NCBI GenBank assembly: GCA_002706335.1
Contig: PAKZ01000041.1
Location: forward strand, 124,001 to 188,000
Direction: 5' to 3'
DNA length: 64,000 nt
Source: Ahrensia sp.
GTDB taxonomy: Bacteria > Pseudomonadota > Alphaproteobacteria > Rhizobiales > Rhizobiaceae
Made by a program: the position numbers and the translations under genes. Below are positions 31,131-48,695 of this stretch, in pieces. Below the pieces are notes generated by a model. It was not told the DNA's origin, did no database searches, and saw only the letters and a list, made by a program, of their open reading frames with translations. Positions within the stretch are counted from its first letter, which is position 1, and each line of letters opens with the position of its first letter.

Positions 31131-31135
31131 TCAGC

Positions 31136-32314: not shown

Positions 32315-32343
32315 TATCCTGACTGCGCGCAACGGGAGGCGTC

Positions 32344-33972
32344 ATGCCCACACTCGACTGGATCGGCAAGAAGGCGGTGGTCAACCACCATCGCGACGTA
32401 CCCTACCGGCTGATCCATTGCGACAAGGACAAGAGCGTCGGCGACGCGGACGCGGGCAATCTGCTTGTGCAGGGCGACAATCTCGAAGCGCTGAAGGCGC
32501 TGCTTCCCTATTACGCGGGCAAAGTGAAGTGCATCTATATCGATCCGCCCTACAACACCGGCAACGAGGGCTGGGTCTACAACGACAACGTAAACTCGCC
32601 TGAAATTCGGGCGTGGCTCGGCTCGGTTGTTGGCAAAGAAGCCGAAGACCTTTCGCGCCATGATAAGTGGCTGTGCATGATGTATCCGCGCCTGCGTTTA
32701 TTGAAGGAATTCCTTACTGAAGACGGCTCGATTTGGATTTCATGCGATGACAACGAGGCTCACTCGCTTAAGGTTGTCCTTGACGAGATAATGGGCAGGA
32801 AGAACTTCGTCACTTCCTTCATCTGGCAGAAGGTCGACAGCCCAAACGACAACAAGGTTCCGATAACACCCGACCATGAATATCTATTCTGTTATGAGCG
32901 GAACAAAGAGAGCGCTGCATTCAAAAAGAAGGGCGATCCTTCAATCCTACTGTCATATAGAAGCACGGAGGAAGAGCCGAGACTTCACCGTGACCGTTTG
33001 GTGAAGAAGAACGGCGCAAACAGTCTCCGCGAAGATCGGCCCACTATGTTTTTCGCGATTGAAGCGCCTGATGGCACAGCGGTTTATCCAATCCATGATG
33101 ATGGCCGTGAGGCAAATTGGGCATACAGCCCATCTGGCGTTACGAAACTCAAGGCCGAAAACCGGCTTGTTTGGAAGGAACGAAGTAAGGGAGGCGAAAG
33201 CGTATGGGTTCCATACGCGCGCGAGTTTGCGCCTGAAATTCCTACCAGGCCGCACCCGACAATTCTTCTGGATGTGAAGACATCGCGGCAAGCTAAGGCA
33301 CATCAACGCGAGTTGATTCCAAGTCAAGAGCCATTCTCTACGGTGAAGCCAGAGCAGCTTATTCAACGGATATTGGAAATCGCGACCGACAGGGAGGACA
33401 TCGTACTAGATTCCTTTCTCGGTTCTGGAACCACTGCTGCGGTTGCGCATAAAATGGGCCGAAATTGGCTGGGCGTGGAGATGGGAGATCACGCGACCAC
33501 CCACTGCGCTCCGAGATTGTCGAAGGTCATAGGAGGTGAGCAGGGGGGCATCTCTGCTGAGGTTGACTGGCAGGGGGGCGGTGGCTTTCGCTTCTGCACC
33601 CTCGGCGAACCGCTTTTCGATGCTGACGGCAATGTGAGCCCGGCCGTCACCTATCCCGACCTTGCCGCGCATGTCTTCTTCTGTGAGACGGGCTCGCCAA
33701 TTCCGCGCCGGGCCGACAGCTCGTCGGCCTTGATCGGCACGTTCCAAGGGCGAGCGGTCTATCTGCTTCACGCGGCCGAAGCGATTGGCGTCGCCAGCGC
33801 CAATGCCGGGAACGTGCTCACGGCTTCCGCGCTTGAAAACCTGCCCCTTCCCGAAACGGGGTTCACCGGCGCGCGCGTTGTCTATGCGGAAGGCTGCACC
33901 GTGCCAGACGACCGGCTTTCGCAACTCGGTGTGACGTTCAAACAAATCCCCTACCAGATCGAAGGGATTTGA
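32344..33972 (+). CDS. mod: Type III restriction-modification DNA methyltransferase subunit (Mod)
   Basis: N6-adenine or related amino methyltransferase of 542 residues that both modifies the target site and gives the Res subunit its specificity. Motif IV is DPPYNTG at 67-73 and motif I FLGSG near residue 358, an order that places it in the beta class used by Type III and related enzymes. The stretch between (about 100-340) would hold the target recognition domain. A GGGAGG ribosome site precedes the ATG. The stop is three bases before res. No simple-sequence tract is seen, so phase variation by slippage is not expected. The recognition site cannot be read from sequence. Confidence 0.93.
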   Translation: MPTLDWIGKKAVVNHHRDVPYRLIHCDKDKSVGDADAGNLLVQGDNLEALKALLPYYAGKVKCIYIDPPYNTGNEGWVYNDNVNSPEIRAWLGSVVGKEAEDLSRHDKWLCMMYPRLRLLKEFLTEDGSIWISCDDNEAHSLKVVLDEIMGRKNFVTSFIWQKVDSPNDNKVPITPDHEYLFCYERNKESAAFKKKGDPSILLSYRSTEEEPRLHRDRLVKKNGANSLREDRPTMFFAIEAPDGTAVYPIHDDGREANWAYSPSGVTKLKAENRLVWKERSKGGESVWVPYAREFAPEIPTRPHPTILLDVKTSRQAKAHQRELIPSQEPFSTVKPEQLIQRILEIATDREDIVLDSFLGSGTTAAVAHKMGRNWLGVEMGDHATTHCAPRLSKVIGGEQGGISAEVDWQGGGGFRFCTLGEPLFDADGNVSPAVTYPDLAAHVFFCETGSPIPRRADSSSALIGTFQGRAVYLLHAAEAIGVASANAGNVLTASALENLPLPETGFTGARVVYAEGCTVPDDRLSQLGVTFKQIPYQIEGI

Positions 33973-33975
33973 TCG

Positions 33976-36624
33976 ATGTCGTTGCCGGTATTCCATCTCA
34001 AGAAGTATCAGATCAAGACACTCGCCAGCCTTCGCGCTTTTCTGGCGAAAGCCGTCGAACTCAACGATGCAGATACGGCATTCTATGCGCTGACGAAACG
34101 TCCCTTCGTTGGACCGCCCGGTCTCCCTGGTTTACCCTATGTCTGCTTGCGCGTTCCGACCGGCGGCGGGAAGACCATTCTCGCTGCCCACAGCGTTGCC
34201 GTGGCAGCGGACACTCTCCTTCGGTGCGAGAATCCGACAGTGCTTTGGCTGGTTCCGTCGCAAGCGATCCGCGAACAAACGCTATCAAGCTTGCGGGACC
34301 GATCGCACCCAAACAGGCGCGCACTCGCCGACCGGTTCGGCGAGAACGTTCGCGTCATGACCGCGCAGGAGGCGCTATATGCCAAACGTGCGGACTATGA
34401 CGGCGGTGCCGTTGTCATCGTGGCCACGATTCAAGCTTTCCGCGTCGAGGAGACTGAAGGCCGCAAGGTCTACGACGCCAACGGCGAACTCATGGACCAC
34501 TTCACCGGCATCGCAGAGGCATTGAAAGCGACGCTGGAAGCCGGACCTTCGGGCGACCCCGTTCCGTCGCTCGCAAATGTACTGCGCATGCGGCGGCCCA
34601 TGGTCATCGTCGACGAAGCACACAACGCGCGCACCGACCTTTCCTTCGATACCTTGGCGCGCCTCAAGCCATCCCTGATCGTCGAATTCACGGCAACGCC
34701 AGTGACCCCAGAAGAGCACAAGCCGGAGAAAGGCATATACGCGTCGAACGTGTTGCACCATGTGTCGGCCGCTGAGCTGAAGGCCGAAGAGATGATCAAG
34801 CTTCCGGTCATACTTCGAGGCCGAAGCGATCCGCGCGACACGATCAGCGATGCAATGGCCTGGCTGGACGAGCTAGGCGTTACGGCGAAGGCAGAAGAAA
34901 AGGATACCGGAGAATTCGTCCGGCCGGTGATGCTTCTTCAGGCGGAAGCGAAATCGAAGCTCAAGCAAACACTGCATGCCGAAGAGTTGCAGAAGCTGCT
35001 TGTCGAAGATTTCCGCGTGCCCAAAGAGCACATTGTTATCGCAACCGGCGACAGCAAGGGGCTCGACGGCGTCGACCTCTTCGACCGAGATTGCAAGGTC
35101 CGGTTCATCATCACGCAACAGGCGCTCAAGGAAGGCTGGGATTGCTCTTTCGCCTATGTGTTGTGTTCTGTTGCAGAGCAGAAGTCGGCACGCTCGGTGG
35201 AGCAACTTCTAGGCCGCGTGTTGCGCCTGCCCGGCGCGAAATGGAAGAAGAACGACGATCTTAATCGCGCCTACGCCTTCGCCACGACAACTAGCTTCCA
35301 GAACGCCGCGCAGACCCTTCGCGACGGGCTGGTGAACAATGGTTTTGAGCGGGTTGAAGCGCAAGCGCTGGTGCGTGCCGTCACCGAGCCTCTGCAAGGC
35401 CTTGAGGACGGCGGCTCGGCTTATGTTCACGAAGAGGCCATACCGGACGGAATTGAATTGGCCGATATTGCCGCCACCATCGAGGCAGCAACCGGCGGGC
35501 GCGTTTCTATCGATGCGGCGTCTCGGGTCATCCGTGCACGAGGTGCACTCAACGACTACGACCGAAAAAGCCTGTTGTTGGCGATGCCGGACGCTGCAGC
35601 AAGCCTCGTTGATGCGCTCGTTCACAAGTCACGCGGCGCGCGCCTAAAGTCAGTAGAACCGGACAAGGAGCCTGTGCGCTTCGCGGTGCCACGGCTCGCA
35701 GTTCAAACGGCCAATGGGCTTCAGCTTTTTGACCGCGCCCATTTCCTCGACATTCCGTGGAAGCTCGAAAATGACGATTCAGCGCTTCTCATGGAATTCT
35801 TCGTGCCCCCGAGTAAGGCGCGCGAAGAAGCCCATGTGGACGTCGACAAGGGCGGGCATGTAACGGTTGAGTTCGTCTCGGATCTTCACGAGCAACTTGC
35901 ACTCAACCTGCAGGAGCGTGGCTGGACAAAGAACGCCTTGGTAAATTGGCTGGATCGTCGCTTGCCGTATTCCTCGCGCCGCGACATTACGCGGATTTCG
36001 TCGACACTGTTCATAGCCAAGGCGCTAGAAACAATTTCCGACAAGACCGGAATGACGCTGGACGAACTGGCGCGTGCAAAGTTTCGGATTGTTGAGGCGC
36101 TGGTGAAGACCATTGCGAAACATCGCGACCGACGCGAGAGCGAAGCATTCCAGCATGCCCTGATCCCGCAAGGCGGACTGGATTTCAAAACGAGTTCCGA
36201 CCTGGAGTTGGTATTTGATGAAAGCCGCTATGGATATCGCCAGCCCTATCGCGGAGGAACCAACTTCCAGAAGCACCAATTTCGTGTGGTCGGCGATCTG
36301 GAACCAAGCGGCGAGGAATATGATTGCGCTGTGTATCTTGAACGCCTCGCCGAGGTGAAAGCATGGATTCGCAATACGTCTCAGCAACCGGGCTCGTTCT
36401 GGCTGCAAACCGCTACTGACAAGTTCTATCCGGACTTCGTAGCTCTGCTGAACGACGAACGACTGCTGGTGGTTGAATACAAGGGCGCGCATCTTTCTTC
36501 GACCGACGATTCCAAGGAGAAGCGCCTGGTCGGGGACCTCTGGGCGGATCGGTCCGGCGGGAAATGCATCTTTGTGATGATCGAAGACAGGGAATTCGCC
36601 AAGATCGATCGGGCCATTCGTTAG
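33976..36624 (+). CDS. res: Type III restriction enzyme Res subunit (helicase-nuclease)
   Basis: Superfamily 2 translocase-nuclease of 882 residues that acts with Mod to cleave unmodified DNA. Walker A is PTGGGKT at 61-67 and the Walker B box VIVDEAHNART is near residue 211. Motif VI appears as EQLLGRVLRLPG near 415. The C-terminal PD-(D/E)XK nuclease is visible as FYPDFVALL followed by LVVEYKG near 815-835, with D, E and K all in place. Length is in the range of Type III Res proteins. The gene looks intact, so the system is probably active. Confidence 0.92.
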   Translation: MSLPVFHLKKYQIKTLASLRAFLAKAVELNDADTAFYALTKRPFVGPPGLPGLPYVCLRVPTGGGKTILAAHSVAVAADTLLRCENPTVLWLVPSQAIREQTLSSLRDRSHPNRRALADRFGENVRVMTAQEALYAKRADYDGGAVVIVATIQAFRVEETEGRKVYDANGELMDHFTGIAEALKATLEAGPSGDPVPSLANVLRMRRPMVIVDEAHNARTDLSFDTLARLKPSLIVEFTATPVTPEEHKPEKGIYASNVLHHVSAAELKAEEMIKLPVILRGRSDPRDTISDAMAWLDELGVTAKAEEKDTGEFVRPVMLLQAEAKSKLKQTLHAEELQKLLVEDFRVPKEHIVIATGDSKGLDGVDLFDRDCKVRFIITQQALKEGWDCSFAYVLCSVAEQKSARSVEQLLGRVLRLPGAKWKKNDDLNRAYAFATTTSFQNAAQTLRDGLVNNGFERVEAQALVRAVTEPLQGLEDGGSAYVHEEAIPDGIELADIAATIEAATGGRVSIDAASRVIRARGALNDYDRKSLLLAMPDAAASLVDALVHKSRGARLKSVEPDKEPVRFAVPRLAVQTANGLQLFDRAHFLDIPWKLENDDSALLMEFFVPPSKAREEAHVDVDKGGHVTVEFVSDLHEQLALNLQERGWTKNALVNWLDRRLPYSSRRDITRISSTLFIAKALETISDKTGMTLDELARAKFRIVEALVKTIAKHRDRRESEAFQHALIPQGGLDFKTSSDLELVFDESRYGYRQPYRGGTNFQKHQFRVVGDLEPSGEEYDCAVYLERLAEVKAWIRNTSQQPGSFWLQTATDKFYPDFVALLNDERLLVVEYKGAHLSSTDDSKEKRLVGDLWADRSGGKCIFVMIEDREFAKIDRAIR

Positions 36625-36712
36625 GCGTTCCACTTTTTCGAATACCGCCCACAAATTGCCGGCTTGATCCCGATTAGTTATACTCTGTTGGATATTCGCT
36701 GGATTTCTTCCG

Positions 36713-37315
36713 ATGCTCACGCCTGCAGAGAAGTCGTTCTTAAGGTCCCAAGGCCTAGCTGAAGCGGATGTCTACGACGCCAGAAACCAATCAACCAGTT
36801 ACTGGAAAAGGCGAGTTCGCGAAGCTGGCAAAACCGTAGTCCTGGGTTCGCCATGCTCGAAGGAAGGCCACAGACTTAGATCACGATCGGGTCACTGTGT
36901 TCAATGTGATACGAAGAAGCTCGCTTATCAAAAGCGTTATCACTCCGATGGCTATGTCTATATTGCCGGATCGCTGAGTGCGAAGGTTCTTAAGATCGGA
37001 ACGGCGATCAACGTTGATCAGCGAGAAAGAAATCTCTGCGGGCATAACTACGCAAACATTAGTGATTGGAAGATAATTTTTCATGTGGCTGTAGCCGACG
37101 CGGGAGAAGTGGAGCAGCGCGCTCTTCGAAGCTTGGAATTCTTTCGACAAGGGCGCACGTACGAGAAAGACGGACGGGTTCAAGTTGCTGGAGAAGTGAT
37201 TGATGCCCGACTCGCAAGAGTGGCAAGTGCCGTTGTGGATGCGATAGGTGATGCGCCGACGAAGAATGCATGGCGATCGGTCAACTGGAAGAAATATGAC
37301 TTCCCAAAAAAGTGA
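36713..37315 (+). CDS. Zinc-finger protein with GIY-YIG-like (T5orf172-type) domain
   Basis: Protein of 200 residues. A cysteine-histidine cluster C48, H53, C62, C65 forms a likely zinc finger. It is followed by GYVYI (80-84), KIG (94-96), arginines at 104 and 106 and a glutamate at 134, matching the pattern of the T5orf172/MUG113 branch of the GIY-YIG nuclease fold. The catalytic tyrosine, arginine and glutamate positions appear kept, so nuclease activity is plausible but not proven. It lies 88 bases downstream of res as the last gene of the island, which suggests an accessory to restriction or an independent defence nuclease. Confidence 0.65.
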   Translation: MLTPAEKSFLRSQGLAEADVYDARNQSTSYWKRRVREAGKTVVLGSPCSKEGHRLRSRSGHCVQCDTKKLAYQKRYHSDGYVYIAGSLSAKVLKIGTAINVDQRERNLCGHNYANISDWKIIFHVAVADAGEVEQRALRSLEFFRQGRTYEKDGRVQVAGEVIDARLARVASAVVDAIGDAPTKNAWRSVNWKKYDFPKK

Positions 37316-37354
37316 ACTCGGCCCTTGCCCAAATCAGGACGTCAATCGACGCGT

Positions 37355-37375
37355 GTTGGTATCTTTGCTGGTATT
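37355..37375. repeat. Right pair of integrase arm-type repeats
   Basis: GTTGGTATC (37355-37363) and GCTGGTATT (37367-37375) are direct copies of the left-end element with the same 12-base spacing as 28021/28033. They lie about 60 bases inside attR, the expected place for the second arm of an integrase complex. Confidence 0.7.
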
Positions 37376-37434
37376 CTAGCATAGAAGAATATTTTTATAT
37401 AATTTTATCAACAACTTATCTAACTAGTGTGACG

Positions 37435-37476: not shown

Positions 37477-38472
37477 CTATAAGCCGTCGAAGTCCTGTAG
37501 GACCTTGATGTAGTTCGCTCGTTCGTAAGCTTCCGGATTGTCCACATTGGCGTGGCTCATCCTGCCGCGGATGTCGGCGGGGGAATTCAGGCCGCGTGAG
37601 GACAGCCAGTCGGTAAGACCGTCGACGAGAACGCGCATGTGGTCGATTCCGTGGCGCAGCAGTGACGACGTTGTCATGACGACGTCGGCGCCGGCGAGCA
37701 GGTACTTGACGACGTCCTCGGGGGTCTCCACGCCGGTCGTCGCGGCCAGCGAAGCTGGGGTGCGTCCGGCGAGCACGCCGATCCACAAAAGCGGCAGCCG
37801 CATTTCATAGGCGTTCGATAGCTGGATGTCCGGCCTGACCGTCAGCGTGGCAGGATCAATGTCGGGCTCGTAGAAGCGGTTGAACATCGCCAGGCCTTTT
37901 GCGCCCGCCTCCGTCAGTTCGCCGGCCATATGGCCCGGCGAGGAGAAATAGGGGCCGATCTTGACCGAGACCGGGATCTTCACGGTGGAACTGACGGCGC
38001 GCACAACGTCGACATAGCGGGCTTCCACGTCCAGGCCGCTCTCGGTTGCGTCAGACGGGATGAAGAAGATGTTCAGTTCGATCGCGGCTGCGCCGGCCTG
38101 CTCGATGTCCCGCGCATAATCCACCCAGCCATTGGCGGTGGTGCCGTTCAAGCTGGCGATGACCGGAATGGCGAGCGAAGCCGCCGCGTTCTCGATGAGA
38201 GCCAGATGCTGGCCCGTATCGTAGGCATAGGCGGTCTGTGCCGGGAAATAGCTCAACGCCTCGCTGAAACTGTCCGCGCCATGGTCGATCAACGCATCGA
38301 AAATCTCCTGCTCGCGCTCGATCTGCTCCTCGAAAATCGATGGCAGCACCACCGCACCTGCGCCGCAATCCTGCAGGTGCAGAAGATTGTCGAGATGGCG
38401 GTTGAGCGGGCCGGCGCTCGCCACCACCGGGTTTTTCAACGAAAGGCCGAGATAGCTGGTGGTCAGATCCAT
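37477..38472 (-). CDS. Dihydroorotate dehydrogenase-like flavoprotein
   Basis: FMN-binding TIM-barrel protein of 331 residues in the DHOD-like group that often adjoins pyruvate:ferredoxin oxidoreductase genes. The barrel core is clear (LKNPVVASAGPLNRHLD, IPVIASLNGTTANGW, IPVSVKIGPYFSS, LPLLWIGVLAG, GADVVMTTSSLL). Where true DHODs have an asparagine-x-serine-x-proline-asparagine type signature with catalytic Cys or Ser, this protein reads ELNIFFIPSD (132-141), so dihydroorotate oxidation is unlikely. The ATG at 38472 has GGAGG upstream; the frame extending to 38814 lies inside nifJ. It is the last gene of the GltD-PFOR operon, 10 bases after nifJ. Confidence 0.88.
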   Translation of the reverse strand: MDLTTSYLGLSLKNPVVASAGPLNRHLDNLLHLQDCGAGAVVLPSIFEEQIEREQEIFDALIDHGADSFSEALSYFPAQTAYAYDTGQHLALIENAAASLAIPVIASLNGTTANGWVDYARDIEQAGAAAIELNIFFIPSDATESGLDVEARYVDVVRAVSSTVKIPVSVKIGPYFSSPGHMAGELTEAGAKGLAMFNRFYEPDIDPATLTVRPDIQLSNAYEMRLPLLWIGVLAGRTPASLAATTGVETPEDVVKYLLAGADVVMTTSSLLRHGIDHMRVLVDGLTDWLSSRGLNSPADIRGRMSHANVDNPEAYERANYIKVLQDFDGL

Positions 38473-38482
38473 GTCGGCCTCC

Positions 38483-41400
38483 CTAGAGCTTGCGCGCCGC
38501 GCCCATGACTTCCGAGGGGTTCGGGCCGGCATCCATGCGCGCGAATTCCTCATAGCTGTGATACTTGTCGCGGATCGCCTGTTGTGCCTCGCCGAGCAGC
38601 GCGGCCGCCTTGTCGGGCCGACTTGCGGCGAGCGCGCTGTAACGCAGCTCGTTGTAGGCGTAGTCCTTGAAGGGCAGGGTCGGGCGGGGCGAATCGAGCC
38701 GGAACGGCGCCTCGCCGACGCCTCGCAAAGCCGGATCGTAGCGTAGCAGGGGCCAGTAGCCGCTCGCCACCGCCTTGTCCTGTTGCGAAAGCCCTTTCCG
38801 CAAATCGTAGCCATGGGCGATACAGTGGCTGTAAGCCAGGATCAACGACGTGCCTTCCCAGGCTTCCGCCTCGCGGAAGGCCTGAAGTGTCTGCTGCGGA
38901 TTGGCGCCCATCGCTACCTGCGCCACATAGACATTGCCATACGCGATCGCCTGCAGGGCGAGATCCTTGCGCGCGGTGCGCTTGCCAGCCGCGGCGAATT
39001 TGGCGATCGCGCCGAGCGGCGTCGCCTTGGATGCCTGGCCGCCGGTGTTTGAGTAGACCTCGGTATCCATCACCAGAATATTGACGTTGCGGCCGCTGGC
39101 GAGCACGTGGTCGAGGCCGCCATAGCCGATGTCATAGGCCCAGCCGTCGCCGCCGACGATCCAGACCGAGCGCCGGACGAGATGGTCCACGACCGAAAGC
39201 AGGTATTCGGCGGTCGCATTGCCCTTGAGAGCCAGCAGTTTCGTCTTCAATTCGGCGACGCGTTCGCGCTGCCGGCGGATTTCCGATTCGCTGATCTGCG
39301 GAGCGTCGAGAATGGCGGTCACAAGATCCGGGCCGACGGCGTCGGCCATCTGGCACAGCAGGTCGCGCGCGATCTCCAGATGCTTGTCGGCCGCAAGCCG
39401 GAAGCCGAGGCCGAATTCGGCATTGTCCTCGAACAGCGAATTCGACCAGGCCGGACCCCGCCCCTCGGCGTTTTTGGTCCAGGGCGTCACCGGCAGGTTA
39501 CCGCCATAAATCGACGAGCAGCCGGTGGCGTTGGCGACCATCAGCCTGTCTCCGAACAGTTGGGACAGGAGCTTCACATAGGGAGTCTCGCCGCAACCAG
39601 CGCAGGCGCCCGAGAATTCGAAGAGCGGTTCGAGGAATTGCACGCCGCGGACATTGGCGAAATCGACGCGGGCGCGGTCGTTGACCGGCAGGCCCTCGAA
39701 GAAGGCGATGTTTTCCCGCTCCGCAGCGACCAGCCCTGCCTTCTCCTCAAGATTGATGGCCTTGATGCCGGGTTCGACGGCGCTTTGTGCCGGACAGGCC
39801 TCTACGCACAGACCACAGCCGGTGCAGTCTTCGACATAGAATTGCAGCGAGAACTGCACGTCCGGATAGCCGCGGGCATTGACCGGCGCGGACTTGAAAC
39901 TCGCCGGCGCGCCGTCGAGTTGTGCCTCGTCGTAATATTTCGCGCGGATCACGCTGTGCGGGCAGACGAAACTGCACTGGCCGCACTGGATGCACAGATC
40001 CTGCCGCCAGACCGGAACCTCCTCGGCGACGTTGCGCTTCTCCCATGCTGCCGTGCCCGAGGGAAACGTGCCGTCGACGGGCATGGCGCTGACCGCGATC
40101 TCGTCGCCCAGACCTTCCATCATCCGCGCGGTCACCCGGCGGACAAAGTCCGGCGCCGTGTCGGGGACGATCGGCGGGCGCTCGAATCGGCTGGACGGTT
40201 CTGCCGGAACCTTGACCTCGTGGAGGCGCGCCAGCGCCCCATCGACCGCGGCCCAGTTCTGCTCGACGATCCGCTTGCCCTTGCGTCCGTAACTCTTGGA
40301 GATAGCCTGCTTGATGGCGGCGATCGCCTCGTCATGCGGCAACACGCCGGAAAGCGCGAAGAAGCAGGTCTGCAGCACCGTGTTGGTGCGGTTCTTCAGG
40401 CCGACCTCGCGCGCCGCCGTCGAAGCGTCGATGACATGGAATTTCAGCTTCTTCGCGATGATCTGTTCCTGGACGCTGCGCGGAAGATGCTCCCAGACCT
40501 CGTCCAGACCGTAAGGACTGTTCAGGAGGAAGGTCGCGCCGGGCGCGGCAAGCCGCAGCACATCGATCTTTTCGAGGAAATGAAACTGGTGGCAGGCGAC
40601 GAAATTGGCCGAGCGGATCAGATAGGGCGAGCGGATCGGGTTGGGTCCGAAACGCAGATGCGAAACCGTCTGGGCGCCGGATTTGTGAGAATCGTAGACG
40701 AAATAGCCCTGCGCATAGCGCCCGGAATCTTCCGCGATGATCTTGACGCTGTTCTTGTTGGCGCCGACCGTGCCGTCGGCGCCGAGACCGTAGAAAACGG
40801 CGCGAACCGCATCGTCCGGCTCGGTCGCGTAGCTCGCGTCGACATCGAGGCTGGAAAAGGTCACATCATCCTTGATGCCGACGGTGAAACCGTTGCGCGG
40901 TTCCGGCTTCTTCAATTCGTCGAACACCGCCTTGGCCTGGGCCGGATCGAAATCCTTCGACGACAGACCGTAGCGTCCGCCGACGACTTTCGGCATGGTC
41001 TCCCGGCCGGCACGCATGATCGCTGAGACGACGTCGAGATAGAGCGGCTCTCCGGTCGCGCCGGGTTCCTTGGTCCGATCGAGAACGGCGATCGCCCGGC
41101 ATGTTTCTGGGAGCGCAGACAGAAGATGCTCGACCGAGAACGGCCTGAACAGCCTGACAATGATGACGCCGACCTTTTCGCTATGGGCGACGAGATGGCC
41201 GACCGTCTCGCGAACGACTTCCGCACCCGACCCCATGACGACGATGACGCGCTCGGCATCCGGCGCGCCGAAATAGTCGAACAATTTATAATGCCGGCCG
41301 GTCAGCGCGTCGAACTGTTCCATCGCATCGGCGACGATACCGGGCACGGCGAGATGAAAGGGGTTGGCCGCCTCGCGCCCTTGGAAGAAGACATCGGGGT

Positions 41401-42070
41401 TCTGGGCGGTGCCGCGCACGAAGGGGTTCTCGGGGTTCAGCGCCCTTGCCCGATGCGCCTTCACCGCCTCGTCGTCGATCATCGCGCGGATGGTCTCGTC
41501 GGGCACCAATGTCAGCGTGTTGACCTCGTGCGAAGTGCGGAAGCCGTCGAAGAAATGGACGAAAGGCACGCGCGACTTCAGCGTGGCGGCCTGCGCGACC
41601 AACGCCATGTCATGGGCCTCCTGCACCGAATTCGACGCCAGCATGGCAAAGCCGGTCGGCCTGATCGCCATCACGTCGGAATGGTCGCCGAAGATCGACA
41701 GCGCCTGCGTGGCGACCGAACGCGCCGCGACATGGAACACCGACGGCGTCAGTTCGCCGGCGATCTTGAACATGTTGGGCAGCATCAGGAGGAGGCCCTG
41801 CGAGGCCGTGAAGGTGGTGGTCAGCGCGCCGGCCTGCAGCGCGCCGTGAACGGCGCCCGCCGCGCCGCCCTCGCTCTGCATTTCTTGGATAACCGGCACA
41901 TTGCCCCAGATGTTGGTGAGGCCGTGCGATGTCCATTCGTCGGCCAGTTCCGCCATCGGCGAGGACGGGGTGATGGGATAGATGGAGCAGACTTCGTTCA
42001 CCCGGTAGGCGACATGGGCAACGGCCGAATTGCCGTCCATCGTCGCTTGCACCTCATTGACATCAGCCAT
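38483..42070 (-). CDS. nifJ: Pyruvate:ferredoxin (flavodoxin) oxidoreductase
   Basis: Single-chain PFOR of 1195 residues that converts pyruvate and CoA to acetyl-CoA, CO2 and reduced ferredoxin or flavodoxin, or runs in reverse. The order is complete: pyrimidine-binding domain with YPITPSSPMAE, CoA and gamma domains, two [4Fe-4S] motifs CIQCGQCSFVCP (from 693) and CTGCGLCVEACP (from 749), an acidic cysteine SGACAGCGETPYV for the proximal cluster, and the thiamin diphosphate domain GDGWAYDIGYGGLDH with DTEVYSNTGGQ. The ATG at 42070 follows GGAGG and overlaps the upstream gene by eight bases. PFOR is usually oxygen-sensitive, so expression under low oxygen is likely; RegBA is a candidate controller. 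Confidence 0.95.
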   Translation of the reverse strand: MADVNEVQATMDGNSAVAHVAYRVNEVCSIYPITPSSPMAELADEWTSHGLTNIWGNVPVIQEMQSEGGAAGAVHGALQAGALTTTFTASQGLLLMLPNMFKIAGELTPSVFHVAARSVATQALSIFGDHSDVMAIRPTGFAMLASNSVQEAHDMALVAQAATLKSRVPFVHFFDGFRTSHEVNTLTLVPDETIRAMIDDEAVKAHRARALNPENPFVRGTAQNPDVFFQGREAANPFHLAVPGIVADAMEQFDALTGRHYKLFDYFGAPDAERVIVVMGSGAEVVRETVGHLVAHSEKVGVIIVRLFRPFSVEHLLSALPETCRAIAVLDRTKEPGATGEPLYLDVVSAIMRAGRETMPKVVGGRYGLSSKDFDPAQAKAVFDELKKPEPRNGFTVGIKDDVTFSSLDVDASYATEPDDAVRAVFYGLGADGTVGANKNSVKIIAEDSGRYAQGYFVYDSHKSGAQTVSHLRFGPNPIRSPYLIRSANFVACHQFHFLEKIDVLRLAAPGATFLLNSPYGLDEVWEHLPRSVQEQIIAKKLKFHVIDASTAAREVGLKNRTNTVLQTCFFALSGVLPHDEAIAAIKQAISKSYGRKGKRIVEQNWAAVDGALARLHEVKVPAEPSSRFERPPIVPDTAPDFVRRVTARMMEGLGDEIAVSAMPVDGTFPSGTAAWEKRNVAEEVPVWRQDLCIQCGQCSFVCPHSVIRAKYYDEAQLDGAPASFKSAPVNARGYPDVQFSLQFYVEDCTGCGLCVEACPAQSAVEPGIKAINLEEKAGLVAAERENIAFFEGLPVNDRARVDFANVRGVQFLEPLFEFSGACAGCGETPYVKLLSQLFGDRLMVANATGCSSIYGGNLPVTPWTKNAEGRGPAWSNSLFEDNAEFGLGFRLAADKHLEIARDLLCQMADAVGPDLVTAILDAPQISESEIRRQRERVAELKTKLLALKGNATAEYLLSVVDHLVRRSVWIVGGDGWAYDIGYGGLDHVLASGRNVNILVMDTEVYSNTGGQASKATPLGAIAKFAAAGKRTARKDLALQAIAYGNVYVAQVAMGANPQQTLQAFREAEAWEGTSLILAYSHCIAHGYDLRKGLSQQDKAVASGYWPLLRYDPALRGVGEAPFRLDSPRPTLPFKDYAYNELRYSALAASRPDKAAALLGEAQQAIRDKYHSYEEFARMDAGPNPSEVMGAARKL

Positions 42071-43757
42071 TGGCGGCAACCTCCGGGATCATGTCGATGG
42101 CGTGGCAGGGGCACTGCTCGAAGCAGGTCGCGCAGCCGGTGCATTTGTCGTAGTCGAATTCGTAGCGCTTGCCGGGGCCGAGCTTGATGATCGCGTCCTC
42201 GGGACAGGCCGCGAAGCAATTGTCGCACTCGTAACAATCGCCGCAGGAGTAGCATCGCTGCGCCTCGAACCGGGCCTGTTTCTCCGTGAAGCCACCGACG
42301 ATCTCGTCGAACCCGGCCCGCCGGTCGCTTTCCAGCCGGCGCTGTTCTCCCGGCTCGGCGTCCGAATAGACGGGCAGATGCAACTTGTCGAAGGTGACGA
42401 GATCGGCGGCCGGCGGATCGACATAGCCGGCCCCATTAAGCCAAGCATCGATATGCCGGGCGGCGCGCTTGCCGTGGCCGACCGAGATCGTCACGGATTG
42501 CTGGCTCGGTACCATGTCGCCGCCGGCGAAAACGCCATCTGCACCGGTCATCATGTCCGGTCCGATCTCGACCGCGCCGTCCGGCGTGAAGCCGATGCCG
42601 GGCATGGTGGCGAGGAAGCCGCTGTCGCTTTGCTGGCCGATCGCCAACACGACCGCGTCGGCCGACAAAGTCTCCAGTTCGCCGGTTGGCCGGGGGCGGC
42701 CGTTTTCATCGAGTTCCATGCGTTCGATGGTCAGGTCGGAACCTGAAATCTCGCGGATGGTGGTCAGCCATTTGAACTTGACGCCTTCCTCCAGCGCCTC
42801 ATCGGCCTCGAAGGCATGCGCCGGCATGTGTTCGCGGTCGCGCCGGTAGACGATCAACGTTTCGGCTGCGCCCAGACGCTTCGCGGTGCGGGCGGCGTCC
42901 ATCGCCGTGTTGCCGCCGCCATAGACGACGACGCGGCGGCCGAGCAGAGGCGGCTGTCCGGCGCTGGTCTCGTGCAGGACATTGACCGCATCGAGGACGC
43001 GGGCCGCATCGCGGGCGGGGATGTCCACGCGCTTGCCGAGGCCGGCACCAATCGCAAGGAAGACCGCATCGAAGCCGCCGTCGCGCTTTTCGGCCATCAG
43101 GTCGGTCACCTTGTGGTTGGTGACGATCTTCACGCCCAGCGCCTCGATGCGCGCCACCTCCTGCGCCAGTTCTGCGCGCGGCATGCGATAGGCCGGGATG
43201 CCGAAATGCATCATGCCGCCAGCGACGGGGCCCGCCTCGCGGATCTCGACGGCGTGGCCGAGTCTTGCGAGATGATAGGCCGCCGAAAGGCCGGCCGGCC
43301 CGGCGCCGACGACGAGGATCTTTTTCCCGCTCGGCGGGCGAACTGCCTTGAACGCCCAGCCCTTTTCCGCAGCCATGTCACCGAGGAAACGCTCGACGGC
43401 ATGGATCGAGACGGGTGCGTCGACCTCGCCCCGATTGCAGCCGCTTTCGCAGGGATGGTAGCAGACACGGCCGTGAACGGCCGGCATGGGATTTTGCGCC
43501 GTCAGGATATCCCATGCCTCGCGATATCGGCCCGCCTGCGCCTCGGCGAGCCAGCCACGAATGTCTTCACCCGCCGGACAGGCATTGCTGCAGGGCGGCG
43601 TCAGCGTCACATAGTGCGGCTTCTCGCGCCGCACAGGGCCGGTGCCGTGCGACGTGGTCAAATCGACAGCGGGCGTGAATTCCGGTAGCTTGGTGTTCAA
43701 GTTTCCTCGCGCCCCTCTTCCGTCATATGAGGGCAAGTGTCGCTTGCGGCGCTCCAT
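42063..43757 (-). CDS. GltD-like NAD(P)-binding flavoprotein with C-terminal ferredoxin domain
   Basis: Protein of 564 residues built like the small subunit of glutamate synthase plus a ferredoxin tail. The N-terminal Fe-S region has CSNACPAGEDIRGW and CYHPCESGCNRGEVD. FAD-binding loop is VVGAGPAGLSAAYH, NAD(P) loop VVYGGGNTAMDAARTAKR. The C-terminus has two [4Fe-4S] motifs, CDNCFAACP and CTGCATCFEQCP. It should move electrons between NAD(P)H and ferredoxin and so couple PFOR to the pyridine pool. No large GltB subunit is near. The ATG start at 43757 is used; a TTG at 43700 has a better GAGGAA ribosome site and is a real alternative. Confidence 0.88.
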   Translation of the reverse strand: MERRKRHLPSYDGRGARGNLNTKLPEFTPAVDLTTSHGTGPVRREKPHYVTLTPPCSNACPAGEDIRGWLAEAQAGRYREAWDILTAQNPMPAVHGRVCYHPCESGCNRGEVDAPVSIHAVERFLGDMAAEKGWAFKAVRPPSGKKILVVGAGPAGLSAAYHLARLGHAVEIREAGPVAGGMMHFGIPAYRMPRAELAQEVARIEALGVKIVTNHKVTDLMAEKRDGGFDAVFLAIGAGLGKRVDIPARDAARVLDAVNVLHETSAGQPPLLGRRVVVYGGGNTAMDAARTAKRLGAAETLIVYRRDREHMPAHAFEADEALEEGVKFKWLTTIREISGSDLTIERMELDENGRPRPTGELETLSADAVVLAIGQQSDSGFLATMPGIGFTPDGAVEIGPDMMTGADGVFAGGDMVPSQQSVTISVGHGKRAARHIDAWLNGAGYVDPPAADLVTFDKLHLPVYSDAEPGEQRRLESDRRAGFDEIVGGFTEKQARFEAQRCYSCGDCYECDNCFAACPEDAIIKLGPGKRYEFDYDKCTGCATCFEQCPCHAIDMIPEVAANG

Positions 43758-43835
43758 TGCGCGTTGATCGGCGTCAAGGCTTACAAAAATTTACGGCTGA
43801 AGGCGGCGGAAGATCGTCCAAGCGAGGCAATCCCG

Positions 43836-44517: not shown

Positions 44518-45981
44518 TCAGGCGTGCTCGGTTAAATGCGCCGCAGCCTTCTCCGCGCCGATGTCGATGAGCGTGCCGAGCGCCCTTTCGAGGCCTTCGT
44601 GCATGGCGGGTTCGGAGGCCAGCGATACGGGGAAGATTTCCTCGATCGCCAAATAGGCCTGGACGATTTCCGCCAGCGACCCGCCCTTTTCCCAGATCGC
44701 GCGAAGGCGATCCGCCATCGGATCGCGGACGTCAATCGTTTCGCCGTTCTCGTCGGTCGCGGAGGTGTAGCGCATCCAGGCCGCGACGACGAGGAACAGG
44801 CCCTCCGGCACTTGGCCGGCTGCGAGGTTCTCCGCGATCGAGCCAAGCAGACGCTGCGGCAGCTTCAGCGAACCGTCCATGGCGATCTGCCAGGTCCGAT
44901 GGCGAATGCGTGGATTGGAGTAGCGATCCATAAGCGCGTCGGCATAGGCATGAAGATCGACCCCGGGCGGTGGCGTCAGCACGGGGATGATCTCTTTGGA
45001 CCAGAGATGGCGAACGAAACTGGCCAAGGCCGGCCGCGCCACGGCCTCGGAGACATTCTCCGCGCCTGAAAGATAGCCGAGATAGGCGAGCGCCGAGTGG
45101 GTGCCGTTCAGGCAGCGCAGTTTCATGTGTTCGTAAGGCCGGACATCGTCTACCATCTCGACGCCAACCGCGCCGAAATCGGGACGGGCTCCGCCGGTGA
45201 AACGATCCTCTATCACCCACTGGCGAAAAGGCTCGTGCATGACAGGCGCTGCATCGAATACGCCAGTGCGTTCCGTCAAGCGCTCGATGTCGGCTTCGGT
45301 CGTCGCCGGTACGATCCGGTCGACCATGGCGCAAGGGAAGGAACACTCCGCCTCAATCCATGCCGCGAGGTCTTCCTCCATCCGCCCGGCGAGCTCAAGC
45401 ACGATGCCGCGCAGCATCGCACCGTTTTCCGGCAGATTATCGCAGCAGAGAACCGTGAAAGGCGGAAGCCCCGCCTTCCGGCGACGGTCGAGCGCACGGC
45501 AGAGAAAGCCCGGCGCGGATTTCGGCCGCTCGGGATCTGCAAGGTCGGCAACGATGTCGGGATGAGTGAAATCCAGCTTTCCCGTCGAGGGCGCGTGGCA
45601 ATAGCCCTTCTCGGTAACGGTCAACGAGACGATCCTGACCGCCGGATCAGCCATGGCGTCGAGCACCGCATCGGGACTCTCGGGCGCGACCAAGATCGAA
45701 CGCACGGCGGTACCGATGCGCAATGTCTCGCCGTCCGGACCGAGTTCACAGGCGGTGTAGGCGCAGCCCTGGGGAACGAGACTGTCGCGCAGATCGGGAT
45801 TACGCAGGCTGACTCCAAGGATGCCCCAGTCGCCGCCGGATTTCTCCATCGCTTCCTCGACATAGAGCGCGGCGAAGGCGCGGAAGAATGCGCCGAGGCC
45901 CAGATGGACGATGCCGATGGCCGGGTTCAGCGCATCTTCCGGCCGACTTAGACGGGGGCGGTTGCTTATGGTGCCAGTCAC
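44518..45981 (-). CDS. uxuB: Fructuronate reductase (D-mannonate oxidoreductase)
   Basis: Polyol-specific long-chain dehydrogenase of 487 residues converting fructuronate to D-mannonate with NADH. The N-terminal nucleotide loop IGIVHLGLGAFFRA and the central KGYCHAPSTGKLD and LKLRCLNGTHSALAYLGYL-type blocks (here MKLRCLNGTHSALAYLGY) match UxuB and mannitol dehydrogenases. The length fits UxuB (486 in E. coli). Start is GTG at 45981, overlapping the uxaC stop by four bases (GTGA); the frame to 46089 lies inside uxaC. Position after uxaC and with uxuA nearby points to fructuronate rather than mannitol. Confidence 0.9.
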   Translation of the reverse strand: MTGTISNRPRLSRPEDALNPAIGIVHLGLGAFFRAFAALYVEEAMEKSGGDWGILGVSLRNPDLRDSLVPQGCAYTACELGPDGETLRIGTAVRSILVAPESPDAVLDAMADPAVRIVSLTVTEKGYCHAPSTGKLDFTHPDIVADLADPERPKSAPGFLCRALDRRRKAGLPPFTVLCCDNLPENGAMLRGIVLELAGRMEEDLAAWIEAECSFPCAMVDRIVPATTEADIERLTERTGVFDAAPVMHEPFRQWVIEDRFTGGARPDFGAVGVEMVDDVRPYEHMKLRCLNGTHSALAYLGYLSGAENVSEAVARPALASFVRHLWSKEIIPVLTPPPGVDLHAYADALMDRYSNPRIRHRTWQIAMDGSLKLPQRLLGSIAENLAAGQVPEGLFLVVAAWMRYTSATDENGETIDVRDPMADRLRAIWEKGGSLAEIVQAYLAIEEIFPVSLASEPAMHEGLERALGTLIDIGAEKAAAHLTEHA

Positions 45982-47384
45982 AGGCGGTAAGCCTTCCTGA
46001 CCAGAGTGTTGGTGAGATCGAGCGCCATTTGTTCCGCCTCCTCCATGTCCACCCGACCGTCGCCGACAAGACCGGCCAGCCATGCGCAATCAACGCGGCG
46101 CGCCACGTCATGGCGGGCGGGGATCGAGCAGAAGGCACGGGTGTCATCGTTGAAGCCGACGGTGTTGTAGATGCCGGCAGTCTCGGTGACGATCTGACGA
46201 TACCGCATCATCCCTTCGGCGCTGTCGAAGAACCACCAGGGTGGACCAAGACGCAGCGCAGGATAGACGCCCGCGAGCGGCGCCAGTTCGCGCGAATAGA
46301 CGGTCTCGTCGAGGGTGAAGAGGATGATGGTCAGTTCGGAACGCATGCCCACCGCATCAAGCAGCGGTTTCAAGGCGCGCACATAGTCGGTGCGCTGGGG
46401 GATATCGAAGCCCCTGTCGCGGCCGAATTTCGAAAATACTTCCGGCGAATGATTGCGGTAGGAGCCCGCATGAATCTGCATGACGAGGCCATCATCCAGG
46501 CTCATGCGCGCCATTTCGGTCAGCATGTGGCCGCGGAAGGCATCGGCTTTTTCCTGCGTCAGGTCGCCGAGCAAGGCGCGCGCGAAGAGCGCCGCCGCCT
46601 CGGCCTGCGGCAGATCTTCGGTGCGGGCGTTTGGGTGACCGTGATCGCTTGCCGTCGCGCCATGCTGCTTGAAAAACGCGCGGCGCTTGCGATGCGCTTC
46701 CAGATAGCCTTCCCATTTTGTCGTGTCGCAACCGGTAAGTTCACCAAACCTCGCAATGTTGCCGCTGAAATCCGGCGTCTCGGGATCGATGACCGTGTCA
46801 GGACGATATGTGGTGACGACACGGCCATTCCAGCCGGACTCGGCGATCATGCGATGCCATTTCAGATCGTCGAGCGCGCCTTCCGTGGTCGACAATGCTT
46901 CGATGCCGACCCGCTCGAACAGCGCGCGGGGCCTGTATTCGTCCGAAGCGAGACGTTCGGAAATTCGATCATAATAGAGATCGGCCGTCTCGGCGGAGAG
47001 GCGTTTGTAGAGGTCGAACAAGGTTTCGAAGGCGTGATCGAGCCACATGCGCGTCGGCGTGGCGCGGAACAGGTGATAATGGCTGGCGAAAAGCCGCCAG
47101 ATCGTGCGCCCTTCGGTTTCGACCCGCCCGCCATCGGCGCGCGGCACGCCGAGATCGGCGAGATCCACGCCCTGCGAACACAGCATCCGGAAGACATAGT
47201 GGTCCGGCGTCACGAAGAGCTGTGCCGGGTCGGGAAAAGGTTCGTTTTCGGCGAACCAGCGCGGATCGGTATGGCCGTGCGGCGAAATGATCGGCAGATC
47301 GACGATGCCCTCATAGAGGCGGCGCGCGGTCTTGCGGGTCGCGGGATCGTTCGGAAAAAGCCTGTCCGGATCAAGCAGGGGCAA
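45978..47384 (-). CDS. uxaC: Glucuronate isomerase
   Basis: Amidohydrolase-fold isomerase of 468 residues that converts D-glucuronate to fructuronate (and galacturonate to tagaturonate). Signatures are LPIISPHGHTDPRWFAEN near the N-terminus with the metal-binding HGH, and FAPGFNDDTRAFC-type C-terminal block (here TVGFNDDTRAFCSIPARHD). The start is TTG at 47384, with GGGAGA seven bases upstream, and the length then equals that of E. coli UxaC (470). The open frame to 47495 runs into dctM and has the wrong composition. It lies 28 bases after the dctM stop. Confidence 0.93.
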   Translation of the reverse strand: MPLLDPDRLFPNDPATRKTARRLYEGIVDLPIISPHGHTDPRWFAENEPFPDPAQLFVTPDHYVFRMLCSQGVDLADLGVPRADGGRVETEGRTIWRLFASHYHLFRATPTRMWLDHAFETLFDLYKRLSAETADLYYDRISERLASDEYRPRALFERVGIEALSTTEGALDDLKWHRMIAESGWNGRVVTTYRPDTVIDPETPDFSGNIARFGELTGCDTTKWEGYLEAHRKRRAFFKQHGATASDHGHPNARTEDLPQAEAAALFARALLGDLTQEKADAFRGHMLTEMARMSLDDGLVMQIHAGSYRNHSPEVFSKFGRDRGFDIPQRTDYVRALKPLLDAVGMRSELTIILFTLDETVYSRELAPLAGVYPALRLGPPWWFFDSAEGMMRYRQIVTETAGIYNTVGFNDDTRAFCSIPARHDVARRVDCAWLAGLVGDGRVDMEEAEQMALDLTNTLVRKAYRL

Positions 47385-47412
47385 TGTCGTCTCCCAGGGT
47401 TTGCGGCAGTGT

Positions 47413-48693
47413 CTAGCCGAAAGCGAGGTGCGGCAGGAAGAGCACCACACCGGGGAAAAACAGCAAGACCATGACGAGCAGAATGATCGCGCCAACGAAA
47501 GGCAGCGATTCGCGGACGTAGTCCTCGATCTTGCAGTCGAGCAGCGAGCAGACCGTGTACATGGCGACGCCGACCGGCGGGGTCATCGAACCGAGCGTGA
47601 CGAGCGTCATCATGAGGATGCCGAAATGGACCGGATCGAAACCGACCGACTTTATCACCGGCACGAAGATCGGCGTCAACAACAGCACCAGAACCGTGCT
47701 CTCGACGAACAGGCCGGCGACGAAGAGCATCGCCAGGATGATGGCGACGATCGCCTGCGGCTGGGTGATGCCAGACAGAAGCGCGCCGGCAATGGTCTGC
47801 GGAACCTGCAGAAAGATGATGGCGAAACCGATCATGCCCGACATCAGGATGATCAGCATGATCATGCCGATATCGGCGACCGAATTTTCGATGGCATGCA
47901 TCGCCTTCGCAAGCGTCAGTTCGCGATGGGCGAAGAAGCCGACAATGAAAGCGTAGACCACGGCGAAGGCGCCGACTTCGGATGGGGTGAACAGGCCGCC
48001 GCGGATCGAGACGATCAGAAGGACCGGAAAGGCGAGCGCCCATTTGGCGTCCCAGGCGGCATATCCCACGGCGGAGACGGACGGCTTTTGCGCATCGGCT
48101 GCCACATAGTTGCGGCGGCGCGCGACCAGCCAGGCCGTGACCATCAAGAAAAGCATCATCAACAGGCCGGGGACAATGCCGGCAAGGAAGAGCTTGCCGA
48201 TGGAGACCTGACCGACATAGCCGTAGAGGATCAGGCCGATAGACGGCGGGATGGTCGCGGTGATCAGTGAGGAAAGAGCGATCACGGCGGCGGAATAGCC
48301 TTTGGAATAGCCGTTGCCGATCATCTGCGGGCCGAGAATGCGCGCTTCCATCGCCGCGTCCGCAACCGCGGAGCCGGACACTCCGCCCATCAAGGTGGAC
48401 AGGATGATCGATACCTGCGCTAGGCCGCCGGCCATCCATGAAACGGTGATGTTGGCGAATTTGAAAAGACGGTCCGTGATACCGCTCTCGTTCATCAAAT
48501 GGCCCGCGAAGACGAAGAATGGAACAGCCAGCAGCGGGAAGCTCTGCGACACAGAGGCCACTTTCTGCACGCCGATCGACATCGGCATCACGTCCGAGGT
48601 CATGAAGAAAACGAACCCGGACAGGCCGATGGCGAAGGCCACGGGGGCCCCGAGGATCAACAGGAAGAGGAAAACGGCGCCGATCAGCAGCAT
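47413..48693 (-). CDS. TRAP transporter large permease (DctM family)
   Basis: Sodium-coupled TRAP large subunit of 426 residues with about twelve hydrophobic segments. Typical DctM blocks are FAGHLMNESGITDRLFKFAN, STLMGGVSGSAVADAA and IPPSIGLILYGYV. It lies between the small permease (gap two bases) and uxaC, so the whole reverse-strand set is one operon. The substrate, inferred from the neighbouring catabolic genes, is a hexuronate or oligogalacturonide-derived uronate. Confidence 0.92.
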   Translation of the reverse strand: MLLIGAVFLFLLILGAPVAFAIGLSGFVFFMTSDVMPMSIGVQKVASVSQSFPLLAVPFFVFAGHLMNESGITDRLFKFANITVSWMAGGLAQVSIILSTLMGGVSGSAVADAAMEARILGPQMIGNGYSKGYSAAVIALSSLITATIPPSIGLILYGYVGQVSIGKLFLAGIVPGLLMMLFLMVTAWLVARRRNYVAADAQKPSVSAVGYAAWDAKWALAFPVLLIVSIRGGLFTPSEVGAFAVVYAFIVGFFAHRELTLAKAMHAIENSVADIGMIMLIILMSGMIGFAIIFLQVPQTIAGALLSGITQPQAIVAIILAMLFVAGLFVESTVLVLLLTPIFVPVIKSVGFDPVHFGILMMTLVTLGSMTPPVGVAMYTVCSLLDCKIEDYVRESLPFVGAIILLVMVLLFFPGVVLFLPHLAFG

Positions 48694-48695
48694 GG

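What the first reader, a model, noticed from the sequence alone, without database searches (positions are those of the whole stretch)
37477..43757. Three-gene redox operon: GltD-like flavoprotein, PFOR and an active-site-altered DHOD-like protein
The flavoprotein has NAD(P), FAD and ferredoxin modules, PFOR supplies or uses low-potential electrons, and the DHOD-like protein lacks the usual substrate signature (ELNIFFIPSD instead). The tight overlap of the first two and 10-base gap to the third imply one functional unit. It may be a reversible NAD(P)H-ferredoxin-pyruvate system with the DHOD-like protein as an uncharacterised flavin partner.
Basis: partly seen in the sequence, partly recalled or inferred. 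Interest (0 to 1): 0.7.

Follow-up and report, generated by a model that had tools for sequence, protein, structure and literature searches.

The report
Pyruvate-oxidising operon with unexplained flavin-type partner
Three neighbouring genes encode a pyruvate-oxidising enzyme, a flavoprotein that probably links it to NAD(P), and a look-alike of dihydroorotate dehydrogenase that has lost the residues of that enzyme and sits beside the pyruvate enzyme in many kinds of bacteria; the gene set is already in print, but what the look-alike does is still unknown.

Summary
The three genes are real, on the minus strand, with the spacing described; the first probably starts at TTG 43700, not 43757. They belong to curated families: NF009410 "NAD(P)-binding protein", TIGR02176 NifJ-type PFOR and NF005741 "dihydroorotate dehydrogenase-like". 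ELNIFFIPSD is that last family's signature: catalytic Cys in 0 of 82 relatives, the usual Lys in 0 of 82, but Asn134, Lys171, Asn198 and Arg199 in 82 of 82. The genome has three ordinary dihydroorotate/dihydropyrimidine dehydrogenases elsewhere. In 200 genomes of the phylum, all 12 with the DHOD-like gene have it directly behind nifJ; of 80 loci from many phyla, 75 do and 21 also have the flavoprotein gene; on plasmid records only 2 of 8 do. The two neighbours also occur separately on nifJ. An FNR-type palindrome lies just upstream, as in 6 of 18 three-gene loci examined. The trio is in print for Propionibacterium (with a proposed bifurcating complex) and listed for Rhodobacter capsulatus. Best reading: a low-oxygen PFOR operon in which the flavoprotein couples PFOR to NAD(P) and the DHOD-like protein is a NifJ-associated, probably FMN-binding partner of unknown substrate, not a dihydroorotate dehydrogenase.

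The parts
42063..43700 (-).
38483..42070 (-). NifJ: single-chain pyruvate:ferredoxin (flavodoxin) oxidoreductase, 1195 aa, with two CxxCxxCxxxCP motifs and further Cys where PFORs have cluster ligands (those ligands recalled)
   Evidence: (TIGR02176, 1754 bits, cut-off 911); only match in the genome at E up to 1e-20
37477..38472 (-). Dihydroorotate dehydrogenase-like protein (NF005741/PRK07565), 331 aa, DHOD-type TIM barrel without the catalytic Cys/Ser, without a ferredoxin module and without a quinone-type N-terminal extension
43764..43777 (.). FNR/FixK-type palindrome TTGAC-GCCG-ATCAA upstream of the operon
   Evidence: only match of TTGAYNNNNRTCAA in the window, 0.12 expected, 11 of 100 shuffles with at least one; also upstream of 5 of 17 other three-gene loci examined

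Best explanation
An operon switched on at low oxygen (inferred from the FNR-type site) for CoA-dependent oxidation of pyruvate. NifJ makes acetyl-CoA and passes electrons through its own 4Fe-4S clusters. The GltD-like protein is its NAD(P) module: C-terminal PorD-like ferredoxin domain to N-terminal cluster to FAD to NAD(P) (order inferred from GltD, DPD and Nfn proteins; direction open). The DHOD-like protein is a NifJ-associated, probably FMN-binding barrel that no longer handles dihydroorotate. With a single cysteine it cannot hold an Fe-S cluster of its own, so it most likely exchanges electrons with the clusters of NifJ or with ferredoxin, much as the FMN domain of dihydropyrimidine dehydrogenase does with its attached ferredoxin domain, and acts on an unidentified, perhaps anionic small molecule (Arg199, Lys171, Glu49, Asn109 invariant). 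Shown: gene identity, spacing, recurrence, correlated divergence, loss of the dihydroorotate residues. Inferred: FMN binding, contact with NifJ, electron exchange, NAD(P) coupling.
For: Family scores over curated cut-offs. In 200 genomes of the phylum the DHOD-like family is over its cut-off in 12, each time directly behind a NifJ (29-67 nt by model coordinates); NifJ is over its cut-off in 31. Of 14 control genomes, the two over the DHOD-like cut-off are among the four over the NifJ cut-off. In 80 loci, 75 have NifJ sequence directly upstream, 69 of them within 110 nt; the 60 with near-full NifJ carry labels of 16 phyla. Distances of DHOD-like and NifJ proteins correlate over 60 pairs (r 0.69, 0 of 999 permutations; GltD-like and NifJ r 0.88 over 18). 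Apart from an antisense-ORF cluster in 14 loci, no other neighbour family was found in more than 7 loci. The DHOD-like model (pLDDT 86) matches DPD (Z 31.7, 285 aligned, 3.3 A) and DHODB (Z 28.6, 270, 2.9 A). Residues named above are in 82 of 82 rows. GltD-like: the 16 Cys in 18 or 19 of 19 rows, the YRR positions in 17-18; its C-terminal part matches a PFOR delta subunit among solved structures, 9bt4_G, E 7e-7. FNR-type site. No match to the NifH family in the genome at E up to 1e-10, so hardly a nitrogenase gene set.
Against: No biochemistry. DHOD-like genes without adjacent NifJ exist: 5 of 80 loci (L027, L029, L038, L053, L067), and the genomes of L038 and L067 have no NifJ over the cut-off. 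On plasmid records 6 of 8 DHOD-like genes have no NifJ beside them; some stand beside lactate dehydrogenase, PEP synthase or phosphofructokinase genes, in Bacteroidales beside a YggS-family gene. The 80 loci were found by their DHOD-like gene and cannot show how often NifJ lacks it; in the phylum sample 27 of 39 NifJ rows lack it. FMN binding rests on conserved positions and fold only. 12 of 18 three-gene loci examined have no strict FNR-type site.
Confidence: 0.45

Rival explanations
1. Three-protein electron-bifurcating complex, as proposed for Propionibacterium: ferredoxin and NAD(P) bind the NfnB-like (GltD-like) subunit, and the DHOD-like subunit oxidises quinols, so that a quinol can be used to make NAD(P)H with the help of PFOR electrons.
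For: Flanking genes of PFOR co-transcribed and co-regulated; a nifJ knock-out severely crippled growth (PMC7650540, section 20 read). The trio recurs in Pseudomonadota, Bacteroidota, Actinomycetota and others.
Against: The two flanking genes occur separately on nifJ (19 GltD-like only, 11 DHOD-like only, 1 both, 8 neither, of 39). The DHOD-like protein scores lower with class 2 (quinone) models (best 21 bits) than with class 1B (72) or PreA (67), and the two class 2 structures I picked out of the list align only from their residue 47 on. It is not an NfnA/PyrK-type protein: DHO_dh is its only Pfam hit.
Confidence: 0.15
2. The DHOD-like protein is an ordinary FMN enzyme that makes or uses a metabolite near pyruvate, co-regulated with NifJ but not touching it.
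For: A gene without NifJ beside lactate dehydrogenase and PEP synthase genes in Stanieria; an ORF that looks like PPDK downstream in L038 and L050 (named by eye, not scanned); new conserved polar residues.
Against: NifJ directly upstream in 75 of 80 loci with few other recurrent neighbours is unusually strict for a mere pathway neighbour.
Confidence: 0.2
3. Non-redox helper of NifJ (assembly, stability or oxygen protection), a DHOD fold kept without catalysis.
For: Catalytic Cys and lysine absent in all 82 rows; many NifJ do without it; oxygen-linked control suggested.
Against: Positions that match flavin contacts of DHODs (recalled: Asn134, Lys171, Asn198, Gly247) are invariant, which a scaffold would not need; present in Anaerolinea thermolimosa, an anaerobe (recalled).
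Confidence: 0.15
4. A working dihydroorotate dehydrogenase.
For: Pfam DHO_dh over its gathering score (39.3 against 27 bits); the same fold.
Against: Cys 0 and Ser 1 of 82 at the catalytic position, Lys 0 of 82 at residues 43 and 44; the genome has class 2 PyrD, class 1B PyrD and PreA over their cut-offs.
Confidence: 0.03

Closest known systems
PFOR with flanking genes in Propionibacterium (PMC7650540)
   Same: PFOR flanked by a GltD-like and a DHOD-like gene; co-transcribed there; also thought to be one redox unit
   Different: Other phylum; I did not test those genes here; their NfnA and quinol reading of the DHOD-like protein does not fit this protein's anatomy
rcc_01729, nifJ, pyrD1 of Rhodobacter capsulatus (PMC5359404, one table passage seen)
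   Same: Pyridine nucleotide-disulfide oxidoreductase, nifJ and 'dihydroorotate oxidase' listed in this order under one RegA-bound region
   Different: A regulon entry only; whether pyrD1 belongs to NF005741 was not tested here
nifJ operon of Synechocystis (sll0741, sll0743, sll0744; PMC11368403, passages seen)
   Same: nifJ with a gene annotated as dihydroorotate dehydrogenase in one transcription unit, transiently raised in dark microoxic conditions
   Different: The table lists a hypothetical gene too and no GltD-like gene (it lists upregulated genes only); family of sll0744 not tested here
Dihydropyrimidine dehydrogenase (DPD) and PreT-PreA
   Same: GltD-like plus DHOD-like proteins together hold the same five kinds of domain (Fer4_20, FAD, NAD(P), FMN barrel, ferredoxin); DPD domain layout recalled
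   Different: The ferredoxin module sits on the GltD-like protein, not on the barrel; catalytic Cys absent; PFOR encoded between them
NADH-dependent phenylglyoxylate dehydrogenase Pad (recalled; PadG and PadI model names seen)
   Same: A 2-oxoacid:ferredoxin-type enzyme joined to a GltD-like flavoprotein for NAD (recalled)
   Different: Multi-subunit enzyme for another substrate; no DHOD-like protein (recalled)

Membership tests
NF005741 dihydroorotate dehydrogenase-like protein | Score over the curated cut-off of 303 bits | tested here: met
   436.1 bits, residues 1-328
Dihydroorotate dehydrogenase (class 1 or 2) | Catalytic Cys or Ser in the N-[IL]-S-[CS]-P-N loop (motif recalled) | tested here: not met
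   ELNIFFIPSD here; at aligned column 137 Cys 0 of 82, Ser 1 of 82; own-genome PyrD2, PyrDB and PreA have Ser or Cys in that loop
Dihydroorotate dehydrogenase (class 1 or 2) | Lys that contacts flavin and substrate carboxylate (L. lactis DHODA Lys43, recalled) | tested here: not met
   Lys in 0 of 82 at residues 43 and 44
Dihydroorotate dehydrogenase class 2 (quinone) | N-terminal extension for the quinone (recalled) | tested here: not met
   First strand at residue 5; two listed class 2 structures (4xq6, 8ofw) align from their residue 47; best class 2 model 21 bits
PreA / DPD pyrimidine half | C-terminal 2[4Fe-4S] ferredoxin domain on the FMN barrel | tested here: not met
   331 aa with a single Cys (sequence); no Fer4 hit
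NifJ-type PFOR (TIGR02176) | Score over cut-off and cluster cysteines | tested here: met
   1754 bits against 911; Cys 693, 696, 699, 703, 749, 752, 755, 759, 823, 826, 851, 1083
NifJ-type PFOR (TIGR02176) | Pyruvate- and CoA-dependent reduction of ferredoxin or flavodoxin | not testable with these tools
   needs enzyme assay
NF009410 GltD-like NAD(P)-binding protein | Score over the curated cut-off of 516 bits | tested here: met
   755.7 bits
NfnAB-type bifurcating complex | NfnA, a PyrK/FNR-type subunit, encoded beside NfnB (recalled) | tested here: not met
   The operon's third protein has only a DHO_dh hit; the rest of the genome was not searched for NfnA
NfnAB-type bifurcating complex | Bifurcation activity | not testable with these tools
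   needs enzyme assay

The most novel reading that the evidence does not exclude
The DHOD-like protein is an unrecognised flavin subunit of NifJ-type PFOR, found across many bacterial phyla, which gives the enzyme a second electron outlet (or inlet) to a small anionic metabolite beside ferredoxin; in the trio clade, with the GltD-like NAD(P) module as well, PFOR could split its electrons between two carriers.
Probability: 0.25. Interest if true: 0.75.

Novelty: new member of a known kind. Interest (0 to 1): 0.42.

Why it matters
PFOR is a central enzyme of anaerobic carbon metabolism, and NifJ is its single-chain form. A DHOD-type barrel that follows it in 75 of 80 loci found by that barrel, over many phyla, yet is labelled only dihydroorotate dehydrogenase-like, is a visible gap: databases may credit these organisms with a pyrimidine enzyme they do not have, and models of their redox balance may lack an electron route. 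Genes so annotated lie with nifJ in Rhodobacter capsulatus and Synechocystis, both laboratory organisms, so the question can be tested now.

Tried and rejected
Chance neighbourhood: rejected. A change peculiar to this DHOD-like protein: rejected, it is the family signature. Nitrogen-fixation role of NifJ here: no NifH-family match in the genome at E up to 1e-10. Other recurrent partner genes around the 80 loci: none in more than 7 loci, except a cluster of 16 antisense ORFs in 14 loci that overlap the genes and are taken as artefact. A repeat of the tRNA-Leu that would bound the island to the left: no shared word of 12 bases or more elsewhere in the window.

Results against the reading, and limits of the counts. 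5 of 80 loci and 6 of 8 plasmid records have the DHOD-like gene without adjacent NifJ (two of the six are records of the same Methylocella species, and the plasmid gene tables are incomplete); in 2 of those 5 genomes no NifJ passes the cut-off. L045 and L079 are counted among the 75, though L045 has only a C-terminal piece of NifJ upstream and L079 has runs of N there; others are cut by contig ends. Coordinates were copied by hand: all rows over the cut-off for NifJ (39, three of them contig-edge pieces) and for the DHOD-like family (12), and 25 rows of the GltD-like family; by my reading the rows left out lie in genomes with no NifJ over the cut-off. For G038, G166 and G199 GltD-like matches under the cut-off exist whose places were not listed. 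The NifJ tree is a FastTree tree of 96 rows, 60 of them loci chosen by their DHOD-like gene, so it does not show which arrangement is older. The GltD-like count (22) includes L061, a weak 35% hit that is not adjacent; I use 21 (17 of the 51 loci with room upstream). The FNR-site count covers 18 of 22 trio loci (window included); L023, L050, L054 and L080 lacked room. The background pieces include the same loci.

Papers: PMC7650540 passages and section 20 in full; PMC11368403, PMC5359404, PMC8360058, PMC5028390, PMC10434189 passages only; PMC9560874 listing only. That the family has no known function in print rests on the searches in an open-access library that lacks most subscription papers, and I opened only the papers named.
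Full report
WHAT IS THERE. Three genes lie on the minus strand: in order of transcription a GltD-like flavoprotein, NifJ, and a DHOD-like protein. NifJ starts at 42070, inside the end of the first gene (42063), an 8-base overlap. The DHOD-like gene starts at 38472, ten bases after the nifJ stop. In the window this is TTG 43700 behind an AGGA stretch.

FAMILIES. The flavoprotein is NF009410 (755.7 bits, cut-off 516), NifJ is TIGR02176 (1754 bits, cut-off 911), and the third protein is NF005741, 'dihydroorotate dehydrogenase-like protein' (436 bits, cut-off 303). NifJ has two ferredoxin motifs and Cys 823, 826, 851 and 1083. The flavoprotein has five N-terminal cysteines, a GxGxxG and a GxGxxA motif, YRR after the second, and 11 cysteines in its C-terminal part; the cysteines are conserved in 18 or 19 of 19 rows, the three YRR positions in 17 to 18. 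The C-terminal part matches a PFOR delta subunit among solved structures (9bt4_G, E 7e-7). That YRR favours NADP is recalled.

THE DHOD-LIKE PROTEIN. Its best solved relatives by profile are DHODB and DPD. The AlphaFold model (mean pLDDT 86.2, low at residues 76-83) aligns best with DPD (1gt8, Z 31.7, rmsd 3.3, 285 residues), and with DHODB (1ep3, Z 28.6, rmsd 2.9, 270 residues) as the next family. In the alignment of 82 rows the catalytic position is Tyr 43, Phe 28, others 11 (Cys 0, Ser 1), and residues 43 and 44, where class 1 enzymes have their Lys, hold Lys in 0 of 82. Asn134, Lys171, Asn198 and Gly247, and also Arg199, Glu49, Glu71, Asn109 and Trp116, are in 82 of 82. So positions that match flavin contacts (recalled) look kept, the dihydroorotate side is gone, and a new conserved set is there. 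Flavin binding itself is an inference. The genome holds three other members of the fold, each over a curated cut-off: class 2 PyrD, class 1B PyrD and PreA. Beside the class 1B gene is a PyrK-like gene that stays under the equivalog cut-offs (best 138.6 of 270 bits); beside PreA an ORF that looks like PreT (by eye).

HOW OFTEN IT RECURS. In 200 genomes of the phylum the family passes its cut-off in 12, each time directly behind a NifJ. NifJ passes in 31 of 200; all 12 falling among these has a chance of about 2e-11 if genomes were independent, which they are not. Among the 14 control genomes the two over the DHOD-like cut-off (Synechococcus elongatus, Bacteroides ihuae) are among the four over the NifJ cut-off. 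In the window's genus 4 of 6 genomes have the gene. Of 80 loci of named records, 75 have NifJ sequence directly upstream, 69 of them within 110 nt, and 21 have the GltD-like gene before it; the 60 with near-full NifJ carry labels of 16 phyla. NifJ and DHOD-like distances correlate (r 0.69, 60 pairs, 0 of 999 permutations), as do GltD-like and NifJ (r 0.88, 18 pairs). No further neighbour family was found in more than 7 loci apart from an antisense artefact.

THE MODULES ARE SEPARABLE. Of 39 NifJ rows in the phylum sample 1 (the window) has both neighbours, 11 the DHOD-like only, 19 the GltD-like only and 8 neither; in 8 genomes the two kinds sit on two different nifJ genes. In the NifJ tree all GltD-linked rows but one lie in one clade of 40 (the exception is a Verrucomicrobiota row), and DHOD-linked ones lie all over the tree (most rows chosen by the DHOD-like gene). 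Exceptions to the NifJ link: 5 of 80 loci, of which three genomes have NifJ elsewhere and two none over the cut-off; and 6 of 8 plasmid records, while two have the full trio. Of the six, the Acaryochloris plasmid holds a NifJ-like stretch elsewhere, and other records of the same two Bacteroidales species hold nifJ.

REGULATION. TTGAYNNNNRTCAA occurs once in the 64 kb, at 43764-43777, just upstream of the operon (0.12 expected; 11 of 100 shuffles have at least one). Within 400 bases upstream of the GltD-like gene 6 of 18 trio loci, the window included, have a strict site, against 11 of 2662 background pieces, which include these loci (Fisher p 4e-10, not corrected for kinship). None of 36 other loci has one within 400 bases upstream of NifJ; these are mostly loci without the GltD-like gene, but L050 and L080, which have it, are among them. 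This suggests FNR/FixK-type control in part of the Proteobacteria; reading the pattern as an FNR site is recalled knowledge.

WHAT IS ALREADY IN PRINT. For Propionibacterium, PMC7650540 (section 20 read) reports the two flanking genes, co-transcription with PFOR and a crippled nifJ knock-out, and proposes a bifurcating complex with quinol oxidation at the DHOD-like subunit. R. capsulatus rcc_01729, nifJ and pyrD1 are listed together under a RegA-bound region (PMC5359404, one passage). In Synechocystis nifJ and sll0744, annotated as dihydroorotate dehydrogenase, are listed under one transcription unit and rise transiently in dark microoxic conditions (PMC11368403, passages). So the arrangement is not new.

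MECHANISM AND VERDICT. Most likely the operon serves pyruvate oxidation at low oxygen, with the GltD-like protein as NAD(P) module and the DHOD-like protein as a flavin-containing partner of NifJ that uses NifJ's clusters or ferredoxin as its electron partner (0.45 overall; about 0.9 that it is not a dihydroorotate dehydrogenase). The substrate is open. It is a new member of a published but uncharacterised kind of operon.

Noticed in passing
window 27813-37400: A probable integrated island next to the operon: tRNA-Leu (27813-27897), tyrosine integrase (ORF 27819-29273), a type III-like methylase and restriction pair (32344-33972, 33976-36624) and a T5orf172 protein (36713-37315); G+C 53-60% per kb against 62-65% around it, ending near the 3' end of the operon. 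No repeat of the tRNA was found in the window.
   Followed up: partly
window 44518-50987: Genes upstream of the operon look like hexuronate use: fructuronate reductase/mannitol dehydrogenase type (44518-46089), UxaC glucuronate isomerase (45978-47495), TRAP binding protein DctP (49278-50987).
   Followed up: no
L143:458-5359 and L144:476-5413: A PFOR-like protein of 1633-1645 aa with extra ferredoxin-like domains in the genomes of L038 and L067, in L144 followed by an rnfC gene; these two genomes have a DHOD-like gene but no NifJ over the cut-off.
   Followed up: partly
L136, L138: In two Bacteroidales records the DHOD-like gene stands directly behind a YggS-family PLP-protein gene, with no NifJ nearby.
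   Followed up: no
L137; L038 and L050: DHOD-like gene beside lactate dehydrogenase and PEP synthase genes in Stanieria, and before an ORF that looks like PPDK in L038 and L050: genes around pyruvate (the PPDK name is by eye).
   Followed up: no
G039:C1:1311795-1316970: GltD-like and NifJ genes without a DHOD-like family match over the cut-off in another genome of the same class that is scored 100% complete.
   Followed up: no
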